The position numbers were made by a program, and so were the translations under genes. From assembly GCA_947172415.1 (NCBI GenBank), contig OX359194.1:3410001-3474000 (forward strand): a stretch of 64,000 bases of DNA, written 5' to 3'. The notes beneath the pieces are model-generated. The model saw nothing but the letters and a program-made list of their open reading frames with translations. It did no database searches and was not told where the DNA came from. Shown here in pieces: positions 46,347 through 53,319 of the stretch (its first letter is position 1; each line of letters begins with the position of its first letter). The stretch is from Chondrosia reniformis. Lineage: Eukaryota; Porifera; Demospongiae; Chondrillida; Chondrillidae.

Positions 46347-47087
46347 ATTGATATTCTGATAGTGACTGCTCTGTAAATGTACTATCAATCATTTAACTAT
46401 TGAATTGTGAAAATGGTGTTACAACTAACAAGTTTAAAGTTCATTTTTCTCTGGTGACAGAGAGTCAGTTAGTCAGTTTGCTTTCCAATACATTGATCTG
46501 GAAAAGAAATATACCCCTGTATGAATGTGTAGGTCATATAGAATGCTACATTATAAAAGTGTTAAAACCATCCAAGGGGTTATCAACAATGCTTGGGTTG
46601 AAGTCATAAATCAAAGAATGTGTATGACTATTGGCTTCACATGGAACTAGGAACCTTTATAAACGTTACGTAGGCACCATTTGTCTATGTCTCCGGTAGA
46701 TGTTAATCTGAGTCTGATCTTGAAGTGTTGGATCGCATTACATTTCGCGAAACCTTCGCGTGCAACAAACATTATCCTAAGACCCACAAACGAAGTGAAG
46801 ATCGATGATTTGTGTATATGTTCCGCGCTTTCTATGGATTTGCACAATCTATGGAATGCGCAACGCAATCTAGGAATTCCTACAATGCGGGCCAATCTAT
46901 AGATTGTCGCGCATTCTATAGATTGCGCACGTTCGATTCTATAGGAATAGTACGAGTACGTTCGATTCTATAGGAATAGTACGAGTACGTTCGATTCTAT
47001 ATAGAGAGAGTACGTTCGATTCTACAGAAAGTACACGTTCTATAGGGAGAGTACGAGTATACGTTCGATTCTATATTCGAAAACGCC

Positions 47088-47280
47088 GAGAATTCAAGCA
47101 AGACTGTCACCAAAATTAAACTTTAAAAAATCACACACTGTCTCAAGAATGATCCTTGTACAAGTGGAAACTGTCCCAAGTTCAAGCACTGGGTCAGAGA
47201 GGTTTTTCTTTAATGATTTATGGAGTGCTAAGGCTCAAAGATGTATTGTGCCTGCCAGCTGCGCAGCAAGGAACAAGCTA
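47088..47280 (+). pseudogene. Inverted partial copy of the Ginger transposase exon 1
   Basis: The plus strand reads CAAGACTGTCACCAAA, ATCACACACTGTCTCAAGAA, AAGTTCAAGCACTGGGTCA and AAAGATGTATTGTGCCTGCC, matching the minus-strand coding sequence at 51170-50990 with several indels. It lies between the left inverted arm and the 3' end of the gene, so the inverted repeat originally reached into coding sequence. Confidence 0.8.
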
Positions 47281-47404
47281 AGGTAGCTATACTACATTGT
47301 AGATGTATATAGACCTATGTGCACTGAGCAATATGCAATATGTATATTATATTTAGCTATAGCTAGCTGCATTGAATAGTGATACCTATACACTGCTTAC
47401 TGAC

Positions 47405-47535
47405 GATACAAATAATACTGCCTTATGTAAACATTAAGTACAATAAAATACTGCATGCCATATTTAAACATTAAATAATACGGTCTTATTTAAACATTAA
47501 GTGTACAATAAAATACTACCTTATTTAAACATTGT
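47405..47535. repeat. Short diverged tandem repeat
   Basis: Repeating TTATTTAAACATTAAGTGTA and CAATAAAATACTGC blocks, about three copies, downstream of the transposase gene. Possibly a source of polyadenylation signals (AATAAA-like). Confidence 0.6.
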
Positions 47536-47629
47536 CTCTATGAAAATGAATGAAACTGATATGAACACGGCTATGAAAAGAAACAACACTATATGGCAAA
47601 TGCTATAGAGACAATAAAATCAGAAGCCA

Positions 47630-47686
47630 GTACTGTAACAAGTGTTAACTTGAACTACCAGTTTAAGTTAACACTTGTTACAGTAC
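47630..47686. terminator. Perfect 22-bp hairpin spanning the transposase stop codon
   Basis: 47630-47651 (GTACTGTAACAAGTGTTAAC plus TT) and 47665-47686 are exact reverse complements with a 13-nt loop. The right arm contains the last codons (Tyr-Cys-Asn-Lys-Cys-stop) of the minus-strand transposase. A role in 3' end formation is inference. Confidence 0.6.
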
Positions 47687-50600
47687 CATGGCTCTTCGCT
47701 ATTTTCTAATGCTGCTTTAGGTACATCCACACATGGTATGTGGTACCATTCGTCACATTTACAACACTGAATCATGCTGCTGTCTTCCGGCATTCTGCAG
47801 TCGCAAAAGACAGTTACTGTGTCCACTGCTCTGATGACTTTCTTGGGCGTTCTCTCTTTCATGATGGGGAACATGGTCAGCTCTCCTTTCTGCAAGCACT
47901 CACGCAGGTGATTTCTCATTTTGCCTTGATCAAAGAGTTGCTTCTCTGGCAAACACCCATTTGCAAGACATGTGGCAAATGCCAATGAAAACAAGCCACA
48001 ATCATATGTACCTCTCTGCATCTGAACATCAATGAAGTTCAGAGTGATCTCTTTATTATCTGTATGGACAATAGCTGCAACTTGTTCTTTTACACACAAG
48101 CTGGCGCTCATGTATAGGCTGTCATAAACATTCACTGTGCCATCCACTGCCCCAATTGTGCTTATAGTAAGCCAATGGGCATGTCCATTGTTGACAATCT
48201 GGATGAAATCTCCCTTCTGGATATCAAAGGCACACATCTGCCCAATGCAAGGAGGTTGAAGACCATGTGCACCAGTTTGCCTCTGCAATAGCCTTTGGCC
48301 TGCAGCAAGAATGTTGTCTGTCACCCACGCTGTTGGATGCAGAAGGATTCCTTGATCTGCGGTTGTGAGACAGACATCCTCAACTTTCACCCACTTATCA
48401 ACTTTCTTCTTAGTAGATGAGCTTTCATTTGTGTCTGGTTCGGATGTCAAGTCAATCACTGTGGAAGTCTGTGTTGTATTCTTGTGCTGGCTCTGTTGTT
48501 TCTTCAAAATGAGATTTTTGGCAGTTGATAGGCAACTGACTACCTTTCGTCTTTTGGCTGGTGCGTCCATTTGTGATGGTGGGCAATTAGAGCATGATAA
48601 ACCCTGATGACATTTTGATGTGCAGGGTGACCCAAGTTTTCGGCAAGAACACCTTAGACTTCGACATTCACTCTTGCAATTGCAGCGGCCGACTTCAAAC
48701 TCGTTGGGTGAATTCAATTTCTTTGTTGCCTCTCTTAGTGACAAAACAGGATCCTTCTTCCAATCTTCTACTGTAAGTGGAAGGCTTCCATGATAGAGTT
48801 CTAGGTCACTCTCACCAAAGCATGTCTTAAGCACTCCACAAGAGGACCTATATACAAGGTATATAGTAATACTGTATGAAGTAATATGACACAATAGCAT
48901 GTACACTTCATGATCAAACAAGAGGCACATCTGCATTGTAGAGCTGTACATTAAACACCTATATATAATCACCAGTATATAACAGTAAGCATTAACATTA
49001 AACACTAGTGCGCTGTGGAAACCATAAAATATATATTCTACCAACCTTACCTGAGCCGATACAAGTGGTGCACTTTCCCAAGGCGTTCTACTACAACACA
49101 AGGTAGCCGATGACGGTCGGTTGAGGCACGGTCAATCCTTGGGATTCTGACACTGACAAAGTTCCCAGGACAAAAAAACATTGTCTTTTTTCTCTTGCCT
49201 TTGCAATACTTTAGCTTCATTTTCTCAGCATTGGCCCTATACCTTTTATCAGCTTCTTCACGCAACTTTCTGTGCTTCTCTGATGATGCAAGTGCTCCAC
49301 AAGTACCATTGCCATCACCTGAGAATGTTTCTCCATCAAGCCCCTCATCAACACTACTACCATCTAGTACAGTCCCACAGTCATCTGCTCCACCAGTACC
49401 ATCGCCATCACCTAAGAATGTTTCTCCATCAAGCCCCTCATCAACACTACTACCATCTAGTACAGTCCCACAGTCATCTGCTCCACCAGTACCATCGCCA
49501 TCACCTAAGAATGTTTCTCCAGCAAGCCCCTCATCAACAGTACTACCATCTAGTACAGTCCCACAGTCATCTGCTCCACCAGTACCATCGCCATCACCTA
49601 AGAATGTTTCTCCAGCAAGCCCCTCATCAACAGTACTACCATCTAGTACAGTCCCACAGTCATCTCCTCCACCAGTACCATCGCCATCACCACCTGATCT
49701 TAGCTCTTCCTCCGTGTCAAGCAAGTCCTCCACATCCTCTTCCATGATGCGCTTACCCTTTGCTCCTGGAAAAATGATTTGTCGAGGAGGCTGCCCAAAC
49801 ACTAGCTCATAAGGGGTAGCTTTCATGGCACCATGAACAGTTGTGTTCAGCTGATCTAAGAAGGATAGAAATTATTTCAAAGTAACATTGCATTCCACAA
49901 AAACAATTTGTTTTAGCATATAAACAACAAATAAGAGAATACTTACACTGTACAAAAGAGAGCCATTCAGACCAAGGTGGGTAATCACCCTCATCATACT
50001 CGTAGATTCGCACTCCCAAAAGCTTCTCAACCATATGATTACCCTGCTCAACCAGCCCCTGGCACTTGGGATTTCGTGGGCGACCATTGACAATGGTCAC
50101 TTCACCAGGCCACTCCCTCACCACACTTTCAACAACTTCGTTCACAAATTCGCGACCATTGTCTGAATGTAGGATCTTGGGCACACTAACATAGGAGAAA
50201 ACATGGTTCTGGAGATTCAGTGCAACTTCTGCTCCAGATTTTCTACTTAAAGGGAATAAAAAGTGCATTTTTGACCAATGATCCATGTAGTGACCTATCC
50301 ATTTGTAGATGCCGTCAGGTCGATGTCTCATGTCTATAAGGTCGATCTGAAATGAAAATATTGAGACAAGAGAGTGAGTAACTGCATGACACCAAAGCTG
50401 GGCAAGCAGCTGCATCACACAACAGGCACGTAGTACCTACTTGTCCCCTAGTCATGAACCCAGATGAGATGATTGGTTTCAATGGTGCTCTTGTGTTTTG
50501 TGGCTTGCTTGTGTGGCATACCAGACAAAGCTCCACAAACTTGTCAATGGCACATCTTGGTATGCACTCATACATCTTGCTGATCTACAGAAATGCATGG

Positions 50601-51222
50601 TTGTCTTTGTTTACAGCCATTACATGACTTTACATGTTTTTTTAAAGAGAATACATGGACCATACATGCACATCAAATTTCGGAACCAATCTCACCTCAG
50701 TAACAGTCTTTTTTGATCCAATATGTCCCTTTTCATTGCAATGAACCTCACTAATAATGTCAAAGAACTCTTCCACAGGCACTACACGTCGCCATCCAGA
50801 GAGAATAGTAGGGTCATTCTCGTTCTGTATATAGAATAATAAATAGTAATGTGATATTAACAAAGAGCTATATAGCTTCATTCAAGCAACATGCACTATT
50901 CACAAATGAGAATTAGTTACCTAGCTAGCTACATATACGTATATAGCTATTGAACATGCATTTGCTCAATGTAGTATACCTTATTCTTTGCTGGCAGGCA
51001 CAATACATCTTTGAGCCCAAGTGCTCCATAATTCATTAAGGAAAAACCTCTCTGTTTGACCCAGTGCTTGAACTTGGGGTCACTTGTACACTGAGGATCA
51101 TTCTTGAGACAGTGTGTGATTTTTTGAAGCTTCTCTTTGGTGACAGTCTTGCTTTTCTTAGTGTTACCCTCGATGTATTTGTCTCTGATAAAGGCATTAA
51201 ACGTCTCTCTTTGTTCTTCCAT
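47668..51222 (-). CDS. Ginger-type transposase: integrase, Ulp1-like protease, PHD finger
   Basis: Six exons: 51222-50980, 50824-50696, 50584-50441, 50346-49947, 49855-49051 and 48847-47668. They total 2901 nt with consistent phases, giving 966 residues and no internal stop. In order: MEEQRETFNAFIRDK; an integrase zinc-binding part (VHCNEKGHIGS ... LCLVCHTSKP); an integrase core with DDE candidates in IDLIDM, LHSDNGREF and KCQGLVEQGN, plus TTVHGAMKATPYELVFGQPP; four acidic 31-residue repeats (GTGGADDCGTVLDGSTVDEG); a Cys-rich motif (RCNCKSECRSLRCSCRKLGS); a Ulp1/C48-like protease (HWLTIS, VNVYDS, YDCGLFSLAFA); and a C-terminal PHD finger (CDCRMPEDSSMIQCCKCDEW...WYCNKC). The integrase resembles KRBA2/Ginger proteins, a lineage related to Ty3/Gypsy integrases. 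The intact frame and matching inverted arms suggest a recently active transposon; domestication is an alternative. Confidence 0.85.
49310..49690 (-). repeat. 93-bp coding tandem repeat inside the transposase gene
   Basis: Four in-frame copies of a 93-bp (31-codon) unit, nearly identical, encoding acidic Gly/Asp-rich repeats (GDGDGTGGADDCGTVLDG). The frames open on the opposite strand (His-rich or Ser/Pro-rich) are shadows of this repeat. Confidence 0.95.
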
Positions 51223-51225
51223 AGG

Positions 51226-52529
51226 ATCATATAGAAAGAACGGACCAAGGGTGTTACGCAATCGATGACGTCATCATTCGTTACCTCTTCGCATGACGAT
51301 GCACTTCCGATAGTCGGTGGGCGTGTCCCGTCAAAATGGCCGACGGACGAATACGGAACACTTCTACAATGGTCTTACGGCCGAATACGGAACACTTCTG
51401 GCCGTAAAATGTTAACAGAATTATGAACAAGCTACTTATGTTTTAATAATGTTTAACTTGTAACTTTGTTAATCATTATCGATTAATCATTATCAATTAA
51501 TCGTTATCTACTAATCATTATCGAGTAATTGTTAGACGAACGTTCCTACGCATATAATTTACTTCATATATTTTAATTAACTAACATCTAATTAAAAACT
51601 AATCAATTCTATCGGTAATTGGCAGGTTTCTGGACCATTTTTGGCGCTTTCTTGTGAATCTTTATTCCGTTACCTTTAAGATGACAACACTGTTAAGCTT
51701 CGGCCCTACTATCTTTGGAGGTACAGATGGGATTATTACCTACATGAAAAGTGAGTTTAATAGCATAAATAAAAGAAAGATAATATTTTAAACTGCATAC
51801 ACAATCATAATTTCAGGGAAGGATCTCCTTAAAAATCAAATGGAGTGTCCAAGTTGCAACACCAATCAAGCAGCTCCTAACACTGTTTATATGGCCTGGG
51901 AAGATCGGAGTGACATCTCTGATGGTCATAGGTGGCGTTGCCCTAATTGTAGAAAAACATCCACTATAAGAAAAGACAGTTTTTTTGAAAAATCCAGGTT
52001 AACTCTACAAAAGTGGCTTCTGCTGATGTTCTTTTGGGCTATTATGTGGCGGGAGCGCTTTGGGAAGACAGCCAGCGATGCCTTTGAAAACATCATTGTT
52101 CATATTGCTGAATACTATCCTGTCTAAAGGTCTTCACACTTCGGCCTTCAGTTTCGATTTTAATAGTTACCACTTTGAGATTTCCATGTTTTTTTCAGCT
52201 TCTACAGTTTTGTATATCCTTTCAAATATCTACTATACATTTATACTGTACTTAAAAAATCTTTAAACCATCCTGGCAATCTTGACAATTAACAAATTAC
52301 TTTAATACACACAGGAGGGAGACAATACATAGAATAATACCGTTGAAAACTCCGACGTACTTGGGACTTGTCCTTTCGTCAAGAGCGAGAAGTGTTCCGT
52401 ATTCGTCCGTCGGCCATTTTGACGGGACACGCCCACCGACTATCGGAAGTGCATCGTCATGCGAAGAGGTAACGAATGATGACGTCATCGATTGCGTAAC
52501 ACCCTTGGTCCGTTCTTTCTATATGATCC
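51226..52529. mobile_element. Merlin-type element nested in the Ginger transposon
   Basis: Nearly perfect terminal inverted repeats of about 150 bp: 51226-51380 (ATCATATAGAAAGAACGGAC ... GCCGACGGACGAATACGGAA) and 52375-52529, its reverse complement. A two-exon frame inside encodes only the N-terminal zinc-ribbon part of an IS1016/Merlin-like transposase, so the copy is probably non-autonomous. It lies immediately upstream of the ATG of the Ginger gene (51222). Near-identity of the arms implies recent insertion. Confidence 0.85.
51681..52127 (+). CDS. Merlin-like transposase, N-terminal zinc ribbon, truncated
   Basis: Exon 1 starts at 51681 (MTTLLSFGPTIFGGTDGIIT) and splices at ATGAAAA|GTGAGT. 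The second exon begins after TTTCAG near 51817 and continues KRKDLLKNQMECPSCNTNQA, WRCPNCRK, STIRKDSFFEKSRLTLQKWL to a stop at 52127. The two CxxC pairs and SFF..S.L.L..WL match the zinc-ribbon start of IS1595/Merlin transposases. The DDE catalytic domain is absent. Confidence 0.7.
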
Positions 52530-52539
52530 GGTGTGCCTT

Positions 52540-52830
52540 CTGTAGAATCGAACGTACTCTTCCTATGGAATCGAACGTGTGCTTTCTGTAGAATCGAACG
52601 TATTCTTCCTATAGAATCGAACGTGTGCCTTCTGTAGAATCGAACGTACTCTTCCTATGGAATCGAACGTGTGCTTTCTGTAGAATCGAACGTATTCTTC
52701 CTATAGAATCGAACGTGTGCTTTCTGTAGAATCGAACGTATTCTTCCTATAGAATCGAACGTGTGCTTTCTGTAGAATCGAACGTATTCTTCCTATAGAA
52801 TCGAACGTGTACTTTCTGTAGAATCGAACG
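52540..52830. repeat. Subterminal GAATCGAACGT array, right arm of Ginger element
   Basis: About a dozen copies of AGAATCGAACGT or GGAATCGAACGT at roughly 22-bp spacing, alternating between TCTTCCTAT- and GCTTTCTGT-type spacers. It forms a roughly 44-bp higher-order unit. The left arm has fewer copies in the opposite orientation (46925-47075). Confidence 0.9.
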
Positions 52831-53049
52831 TGCGCAATCTATAGAATGCGCGACAATCTATAGATTGGCCCGCATTGTAGGAATTCCTAGATTGCGTTGC
52901 GCATTCTATAGATTGCGCAAATCCATAGAAAGCGCGGAACATATATATGAAGAACAGATCGCGTTGTGGCATCGAAAGGCTTTCTCGAAAATGGATAAAT
53001 ATTCCTGGCTGCTTTTTGTAAACACAGCACATCACTGTCTGGCTTCATA

Positions 53050-53319
53050 GTGACTAGGCCACCTGTGGAACCAAAGAATTTCTACAGGATCGGCCCACTC
53101 TATGCCGACAATCTTGCTATCGCTCATGGACTCTTACAGAAAGCTATTACTGCAGTGCTACCACAAAACCGACACACTAAATTTTCTCTAAATGTTTCGA
53201 AGTTTAGCAGTGACGCTATTCGCCTCGCAAGGGACACATTTAAGGGTAAATTGCAACTGGAGACGAACCACATGTACACTAATTATAAAGAAATTAATGG
53301 CTGCCGTGGGGATGAGTAA
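53050..53319 (+). CDS. Unrecognised ORF next to Ginger element, possible host exon
   Basis: An 89-codon open frame (RPPVEPKNFYRIGPLYADNL ... TKFSLNVSKFSSDAIRLARD) with typical coding composition, preceded by an acceptor-like CTTCATAG and ending in a stop at 53319. I do not recognise it. It may be the last exon of a gene whose upstream part was displaced by the adjacent 6-kb transposon, or a further part of that transposon. Confidence 0.35.
   Translation: MTRPPVEPKNFYRIGPLYADNLAIAHGLLQKAITAVLPQNRHTKFSLNVSKFSSDAIRLARDTFKGKLQLETNHMYTNYKEINGCRGDE

What the first reader, a model, noticed from the sequence alone, without database searches (positions are those of the whole stretch)
46740..53005. 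Apparently intact Ginger-type transposon with a five-module protein
Six exons join without a stop into 966 residues combining integrase zinc-binding and DDE core, four acidic repeats, a CXC-like Cys cluster, a Ulp1/C48-like protease and a PHD finger. The gene sits between matching inverted arms. Integrase-type DNA transposons with accessory proteases and PHD fingers are known from the Ginger group, but this module order with internal acidic repeats and long exon-overlapping arms is worth characterising. An open frame implies recent activity or domestication.
Basis: partly seen in the sequence, partly recalled or inferred. Interest (0 to 1): 0.82.

Follow-up and report, generated by a model that had tools for sequence, protein, structure and literature searches.

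The report
Sponge jumping gene with protease cassette
A real cut-and-paste jumping gene in a sponge genome still has an open protein-coding part, but a second jumping gene has damaged its front; related protease-plus-chromatin-reader tails are also found on unrelated jumping genes in the same genome.

Summary
The window lies on chromosome 6 of the sponge Chondrosia reniformis. True element: 46819-52941 (TGTTCC...GGAACA) between TATA flanks. Corrections: (1) not intact: a 1306-bp internally deleted Merlin-type element (51224-52529) lies one base before the ATG, with about 72 bp of leader missing. (2) Not Ginger1: no YPYY or GPY/F, target RTATAY; these are Ginger2 traits, but its TGTTC ends miss Ginger2's TGTNR. 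(3) The exon-overlapping arms are long terminal inverted repeats that include exon 1. Six of six other close copies examined are broken: a small transposon family with short derivatives, not a domesticated gene. Beyond the finding: 87 genomic loci match the tail or part of it (11 only the PHD). Same-strand upstream neighbours are integrases at 14 and pogo-type DDE_1 transposases at 7; one locus has DDE_1, Ulp1 and PHD in a single 692-aa frame.

The parts
46819..52941 (-). Whole element, TGTTCCGCGC...GCGCGGAACA, 6123 bp including the nested element
   Evidence: End position shared by copies and short derivatives
46815..46818 (.). TATA, presumed target duplication (left)
   Evidence: TATA in 21 of 23 distinct end flanks held, purine before it in 20 of 23; palindromic, so duplication length not proven
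52942..52945 (.). TATA, presumed target duplication (right)
46819..47366 (+). 3' arm of the long terminal inverted repeat, with a degenerate inverted copy of exon 1 within about 47096-47259
52530..52941 (-). Outer part of the 5' arm; the arm continues at 50921-51223 beyond the nested element
52531..52847 (.). Subterminal tandem array, 23/46-bp units, candidate transposase-binding sites
   Evidence: binding inferred
46929..47024 (.). Shorter subterminal array in the 3' arm, 29-bp units
51224..52529 (.). Nested, internally deleted Merlin-type element with 142-bp perfect inverted repeats; remnant of the transposase frame within 51681-52127 (+)
   Evidence: 98-99% to a longer copy on C9 (L040:1162-3002) whose 289-aa frame matches DDE_Tnp_IS1595, 71.4 vs 27 bits
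50980..51222 (-). Exon 1 (aa 1-81)
50696..50824 (-). Exon 2 (start of integrase zinc-binding domain)
50441..50584 (-). Exon 3 (rest of integrase zinc-binding domain)
49947..50346 (-). Exon 4, DDE integrase core (D174, D234, E272; 37 residues between the last two)
49051..49855 (-). Exon 5, end of core, acidic repeats, C-terminal integrase region (VRIPRIDR)
49293..49691 (-). Acidic repeat array, 93-bp units (31 aa), four full units
47668..48847 (-). Exon 6: Cys cluster, protease, PHD finger, stop
48583..48687 (-). Cys cluster (aa 628-662)
   Evidence: similar cluster in L039
47917..48198 (-). Ulp1/SENP-like (C48) protease region, aa 791-884
47671..47799 (-). PHD finger, aa 924-966

Best explanation
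A low-copy, Ginger2-like cut-and-paste DNA transposon of the sponge Chondrosia reniformis. Its integrase-type transposase is presumed to bind the subterminal repeats, cut at the TG...CA ends and join the element to TATA in RTATAY or (TA)n sites. The C-terminal tail is most likely an accessory that removes SUMO or a related tag from host proteins (Ulp1/SENP-like protease) while docking on histone H3 tails, perhaps H3K4me3 (PHD finger), which would help the element escape silencing or steer it to open chromatin. The acidic array is a variable linker between catalytic core and C-terminal integrase region. The window copy is open-reading, but the leader next to its ATG was lost to a Merlin-type derivative, so its own promoter is probably cut off. 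Shown: gene structure, ends, target preference, copies, nested element, fold match of the protease. Inferred: enzyme activities, binding sites, role of the tail, present inactivity.
For: 966-aa open model with GT-AG introns; domains and catalytic residues; six close copies at 87-99% in the integrase core; terminal-repeat search with 45 matches and four short derivatives of 516-616 bp with the same ends; TATA in 21 of 23 end flanks, R before it in 20 of 23; one derivative sits in the (TA)n tract of a dispersed repeat, and 84 other places match a pattern for that repeat without an element inside (gap up to 30 bases; backward control 0); no YPYY or GPY/F; dN/dS 0.21 against the related family L037 over 665 codons, 15 stop codons skipped; protease model best matched by SENP5, SENP1, SENP2, SENP3 and Ulp1; PHD closest to PHF2, TAF3, DIDO1 and PPS, several of them solved with H3K4me3 peptides by the entry titles.
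Against: Ends TGTTC do not fit the published TGTNR pattern. Arms of about 500 bp exceed the 50-180 bp published for the metazoan Ginger2 families. The target duplication cannot be measured because TATA is a palindrome inside TA runs; a TA duplication with longer element ends is not excluded. Three of the four expected Pfam matches are below cut-off, and a YopJ acetyltransferase model is above its own. No tree with Ginger1/Ginger2 reference proteins could be built. dN/dS among the six close copies is 0.48-1.23 (values for L032, L035 and L036 are unreliable because deleted exons align poorly). The integrase-core model failed (pLDDT 40).
Confidence: 0.75

Rival explanations
1. It is a Ginger1 element, as the Ulp1+PHD tail suggests (Ginger1-9_HM of Hydra has both).
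For: In the sections read of the paper that defines both groups, Ulp1 and PHD are reported for Ginger1 and not for Ginger2.
Against: No YPYY and no GPY/F motif; target RTATAY instead of CCGG/CCGT. A Ginger1-like element in the same genome (L076) looks different, with TTPYHPQANG and a GPY/F-like LGLY, and is 30% identical over a 94-aa core fragment.
Confidence: 0.1
2. A domesticated host gene derived from a Ginger element.
For: It is the only fully open copy among the seven compared.
Against: Terminal repeats at both ends, several close copies and non-autonomous derivatives; the start region is disrupted by a Merlin-type element.
Confidence: 0.05
3. A chance assembly of unrelated frames.
For: Some Pfam scores are below cut-off.
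Against: All six exon blocks recur in the C7 copy at 98-100%, with 5 of 5 donors GT and 4 of 5 acceptors AG; most recur in other copies, and in the relative L037.
Confidence: 0.02
4. The shared Ulp1-PHD tail reflects repeated independent capture of host SENP-like genes, or common descent with fast change, rather than exchange among transposons.
For: Ulp1/C48 domains are known from Ginger1, Mutator and Crypton elements. One pogo-associated tail (L078) is only 33% identical to the window tail, and three of four inner branches of the tail tree are unresolved, with long end branches. The pogo copy on C12 shows no protease.
Against: The tail keeps the order Ulp1 then PHD and 41-44% identity between the window element and two pogo-type examples (L075, L077), higher than or equal to the 39% with its integrase sister L037, whose core is 77% identical; the split that separates L037 plus L078 from the other five has support 95/94.
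Confidence: 0.4

Closest known systems
Ginger2/TDD DNA transposons (Bao, Kapitonov and Jurka 2010, PMC2836005; abstract and sections 5, 6, 8, 9 read)
   Same: H2C2 plus DDE integrase-type transposase, no YPYY or GPY/F, AT-rich RTATAY target, TG...CA ends
   Different: TGTTC not TGTNR; Ulp1, PHD and Cys cluster not reported for Ginger2 in the sections read; about 500-bp arms; internal acidic repeat array
Ginger1 DNA transposons, especially Ginger1-9_HM (same paper)
   Same: Ulp1 and PHD after the integrase; introns
   Different: YPYY and GPY/F absent here; CCGG/CCGT target not used
Endogenous nimaviruses of sesarmid crabs with a Ginger2-like integrase (PMC10871703, passages seen)
   Same: Ginger2-like integrase, insertion into (AT/TA)n
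   Different: A large viral genome; the words PHD, Ulp1 and protease do not occur in the main text held
KRBA2/SCAND3-like integrase-derived proteins (recalled, from no call)
   Same: The VRIPRIDR stretch and the Cys cluster resemble them from memory
   Different: Not compared here; the one paper search for KRBA2 (listing only) gave nothing used

Membership tests
Ginger2/TDD | H2C2 zinc finger and DDE catalytic domain | tested here: met
   Pfam matches in the right order, below curated cut-offs, with metal-binding and catalytic residues present
Ginger2/TDD | No YPYY and no GPY/F motif | tested here: met
   Pattern search of the 966 residues
Ginger2/TDD | Target RTATAY | tested here: met
   TATA 21 of 23 distinct flanks held, purine before it 20 of 23
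Ginger2/TDD | 4-bp target duplication (5 bp in TDD-4/5) | tested here: inconclusive
   TATA is palindromic and lies in TA runs
Ginger2/TDD | TGTNR ends | tested here: not met
   TGTTC at 22 of 25 listed ends; hence 'Ginger2-like', not filed as a formal member
Ginger2/TDD | Terminal repeats of about 50-180 bp in metazoan families | tested here: not met
   About 500 aligned columns in the window family; relative L037 has 93
Ginger2/TDD | Integrase clusters with Ginger2 in a tree | not testable with these tools
   No reference proteins held
Ginger1 | YPYY and GPY/F motifs | tested here: not met
Ginger1 | CCGG or CCGT target | tested here: not met
Ginger1 | C-terminal OTU or Ulp1, sometimes PHD | tested here: met
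Merlin (nested element) | ISXO2/IS1595-type DDE transposase | tested here: met
   In the longer copy L040, 71.4 vs 27 bits; the core is deleted in the window copy, whose remnant alone matched no transposase model above cut-off
Merlin (nested element) | Target duplication of 8-9 bp (recalled, from no call) | tested here: not met
   Flanks differ and about 72 bp of leader are missing against L031, counted by eye; called Merlin-type through its relative only
Ulp1/SENP protease (C48) | His-Asp-Gln-Cys set and SENP fold | tested here: met
   Residues; H, D, Q and C invariant in 6 of 6 aligned tails; fold
H3K4me3-reading PHD finger | Aromatic cage and peptide binding | tested here: inconclusive
   Nearest solved fingers include H3K4me3 readers; cage residues judged by eye, binding not testable

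The most novel reading that the evidence does not exclude
One Ulp1-SENP protease plus PHD module circulates as an exchangeable accessory among unrelated DDE transposons of one genome (Ginger2-like, Ginger1-like and pogo-type), a shared kit against SUMO-based silencing and for reading active chromatin.
Probability: 0.4. Interest if true: 0.7.

Novelty: new variant of a known kind. Interest (0 to 1): 0.5.

Why it matters
Why transposons carry SUMO or ubiquitin proteases is open; Bao et al. suggested a role in repair after transposition. Related protease plus chromatin-reader tails behind unrelated transposases in one small, chromosome-level sponge genome give a natural comparison: if the tail is exchanged, the tail rather than the transposase is what is selected. 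The element also joins Ginger2-type integration with a tail that the paper sections read tie to Ginger1.

Tried and rejected
YopJ-type acetyltransferase for the protease: Pfam Acetyltransf_14 reached 25.1 vs 24.4 bits, but the fold search ranks SENP/Ulp1 first and a YopJ-type protein (PopP2) only 32nd at E 0.014.

Viral origin: one scan of viral contigs with the integrase core found no relative (18 pattern matches, none confirmed). Integrase-core fold: model too poor to use (pLDDT 40), no fold search made with it. An exact target duplication could not be established. The pogo-type copy on C12 (90% identical in the DDE part) shows no match where the protease would begin, so the single-frame fusion in L075 is backed by one locus only; the other associations are by neighbourhood.

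Neighbourhood counts: searches (43 tail loci, one DDE_1 row added by hand; part of the rows) are superseded (all 150 rows; all 102 rows). All of these lists are themselves capped best candidates, so counts are lower bounds. One search was a translation in a wrong frame and is not used. One search was a script that failed on a file name and was repeated. In one search the window's own end coordinates were entered four bases too far out on each side; the text gives the corrected ones.

Paper searches that led nowhere: no paper; its terms also missed the Ginger paper; listings only.
Full report
Where it is. The window is G000:C6:3410001-3474000 of a 117,379,552-base assembly in 15 contigs. The ten contig lengths seen agree with the chromosome table of the kidney sponge Chondrosia reniformis assembly odChoReni1.1 (PMC12181767, passages read), so the window is chromosome 6.

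Gene. Domain order: zinc-binding aa 96-153, DDE core 173-265, acidic array about 361-490, a C-terminal region with VRIPRIDR near 541, Cys cluster 628-662, C48-like protease 791-884, PHD 924-966. Of these the PHD passes its Pfam cut-off; C48 misses by 0.3 bits, rve and H2C2 by more. The model of exon 6 (392 aa, 6-row alignment A1) has mean pLDDT 63: roughly the first 150 residues are of low confidence, while ten-residue blocks in the protease and PHD regions score 71-92 with one at 42. Its best matches in the PDB are SENP5, SENP1, Ulp1, SENP3 and SENP2. The PHD is closest by sequence to PHF2, TAF3, DIDO1 and PPS among others.

Ends and targets. Of 25 listed ends, 22 read TGTTC. Of 23 distinct end flanks among the loci held, 21 have TATA and 20 a purine before it, which is the RTATAY preference published for Ginger2 (PMC2836005, abstract and sections 5, 6, 8 and 9 read). 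One short derivative on C7 lies in the (TA)n tract of a dispersed repeat; a pattern for that repeat without an element in the tract (gap up to 30 bases) matches 84 places, backward control 0. Because TATA is palindromic, the duplication length is not proven.

Arms. With the nested element left out, the two arms align over 496 columns at 91% in the window copy, 541 columns at 92% in the C7 copy and, in part, 371 at 89% in the C2 copy, and they include exon 1; in L037, whose integrase core is 77% identical, 93 columns align. The inner part holds tandem arrays (23/46-bp units at one end, 29-bp at the other).

Nested element. The perfect 142-bp arms at 51224-51365 and 52388-52529 belong to a 1306-bp element that is 98-99% identical to a longer one on C9, whose 289-aa frame matches DDE_Tnp_IS1595. 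Compared with the C7 copy, about 72 bp before the ATG are missing (counted by eye) and no flanking duplication is seen. The coding frame is open, but the start of transcription is likely disturbed.

Copies. The integrase core finds six close copies (87-99%), a 73% relative on C2 and two 71-bp matches. Exon by exon, six of six close copies have frameshifts, stops or deletions. Acidic units number 4 in the window; 3, 3, 2, 1, 0 and 3 in L031-L036 (L035 has lost the region); and 0 in L037: a variable array, not a conserved domain. Against L037, dN/dS is 0.21 over 665 codons; among the close copies 0.48-1.23, three of these values being unreliable.

Shared tail. Searching the genome with the protein also found Ulp1-PHD matches at places without an integrase match in that list. 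One, C6:2991967-2994042, is a single 692-aa frame with DDE_1 (53.7 vs 22 bits), an acidic stretch, C48 (22.7 vs 20.7) and PHD (22.2 vs 24, below cut-off); an upstream frame matches HTH_Tnp_Tc5 (29.3 vs 22.2): a pogo-type transposase with the same kind of tail. A search with this tail gave 107 matches, merged into 87 loci after one linker fragment was dropped; 11 of 87 match only the PHD. Within 4 kb upstream on the same strand, 14 of 87 have an integrase match (all 102 places; 6 of the 14 are copies of the window family, one is L037, and two of the other seven match only the PHD), with 2 neighbours downstream on the opposite strand and none elsewhere; locally shifted positions give a mean of 0.36 and a maximum of 3 in 500 trials. 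With the independent Pfam search for DDE_1 (all 150 places), 7 of 87 have DDE_1 upstream on the same strand, 1 downstream on the same strand, none on the opposite strand; shifted positions give a mean of 0.52 and a maximum of 4. A search with the L075 transposase part adds three more upstream same-strand cases, one of them L075 itself, and three downstream-opposite ones. At about 63 of 87 loci no transposase match was seen; some may be host SENP or PHD genes. L076 on C10 joins a Ginger1-like integrase frame with an Ulp1 frame.

Exchange or common origin. The window tail is 41% and 44% identical to the pogo tails L075 and L077, 33% to a third pogo-associated one (L078), 39% to the Ginger1-like tail L076, 32% to the integrase-associated L080 and 39% to the tail of L037. 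Of these only L075 is linked to its transposase in one frame; L077 and L078 are linked by neighbourhood. A seven-row tree splits L037 plus L078 from the other five at 95/94; three of four inner branches are unresolved and several end branches are long. This is suggestive of exchange, not proof; faster evolution of exon 6 would look similar.

Literature. Searches for Ginger2 with Ulp1 and for pogo with transposase, Ulp1 and PHD returned the Ginger paper alone; pogo with Ulp1 and transposon added a Crypton and a Utopia paper; transposase with Ulp1 and PHD finger gave one listing that I did not open. In the Crypton paper (passages read) C48 peptidases occur in two Crypton groups and domain shuffling is suggested. 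Passages of PMC12863088, PMC10871703, PMC5753468 and PMC10045372 were seen. A Ginger2-like element with Ulp1 and PHD, and a pogo element with Ulp1 and PHD, were not found in these searches; subscription papers, Repbase and Dfam were not searched.

Verdict. A real Ginger2-like element with an open frame but a damaged front, a new variant of a known kind. The more interesting lead is the tail shared across transposase types.

Noticed in passing
L075 (C6:2991800-2996800), frame 165-2243 minus: Pogo-type DDE_1 transposase, acidic stretch, Ulp1 and PHD in one 692-aa frame; a 155-bp near-perfect hairpin lies at L075:3372-3705.
   Followed up: partly
window 51224-52529: Internally deleted Merlin-type element next to the start codon, without a visible target duplication and with about 72 bp of the host element missing.
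   Followed up: yes
L040:1162-3002 (C9): Longer Merlin-type copy with a 289-aa ISXO2-like frame and 142-bp inverted repeats.
   Followed up: partly
window 52999-53316 (+): Open frame about 60 bp beyond the element end with a GNAT-type match just under its cut-off (22.0 vs 22.7 bits); possible host gene exon.
   Followed up: partly
L076 (C10:98000-100500); second place at C10:121541-123341: Ginger1-like integrase with Ulp1 in the same genome; matches of the same size and spacing recur 23.3 kb away.
   Followed up: partly
84 places listed: Dispersed repeat with a variable TA-rich tract; one short derivative of the element sits in such a tract, and flanks of two other copies resemble it.
   Followed up: partly
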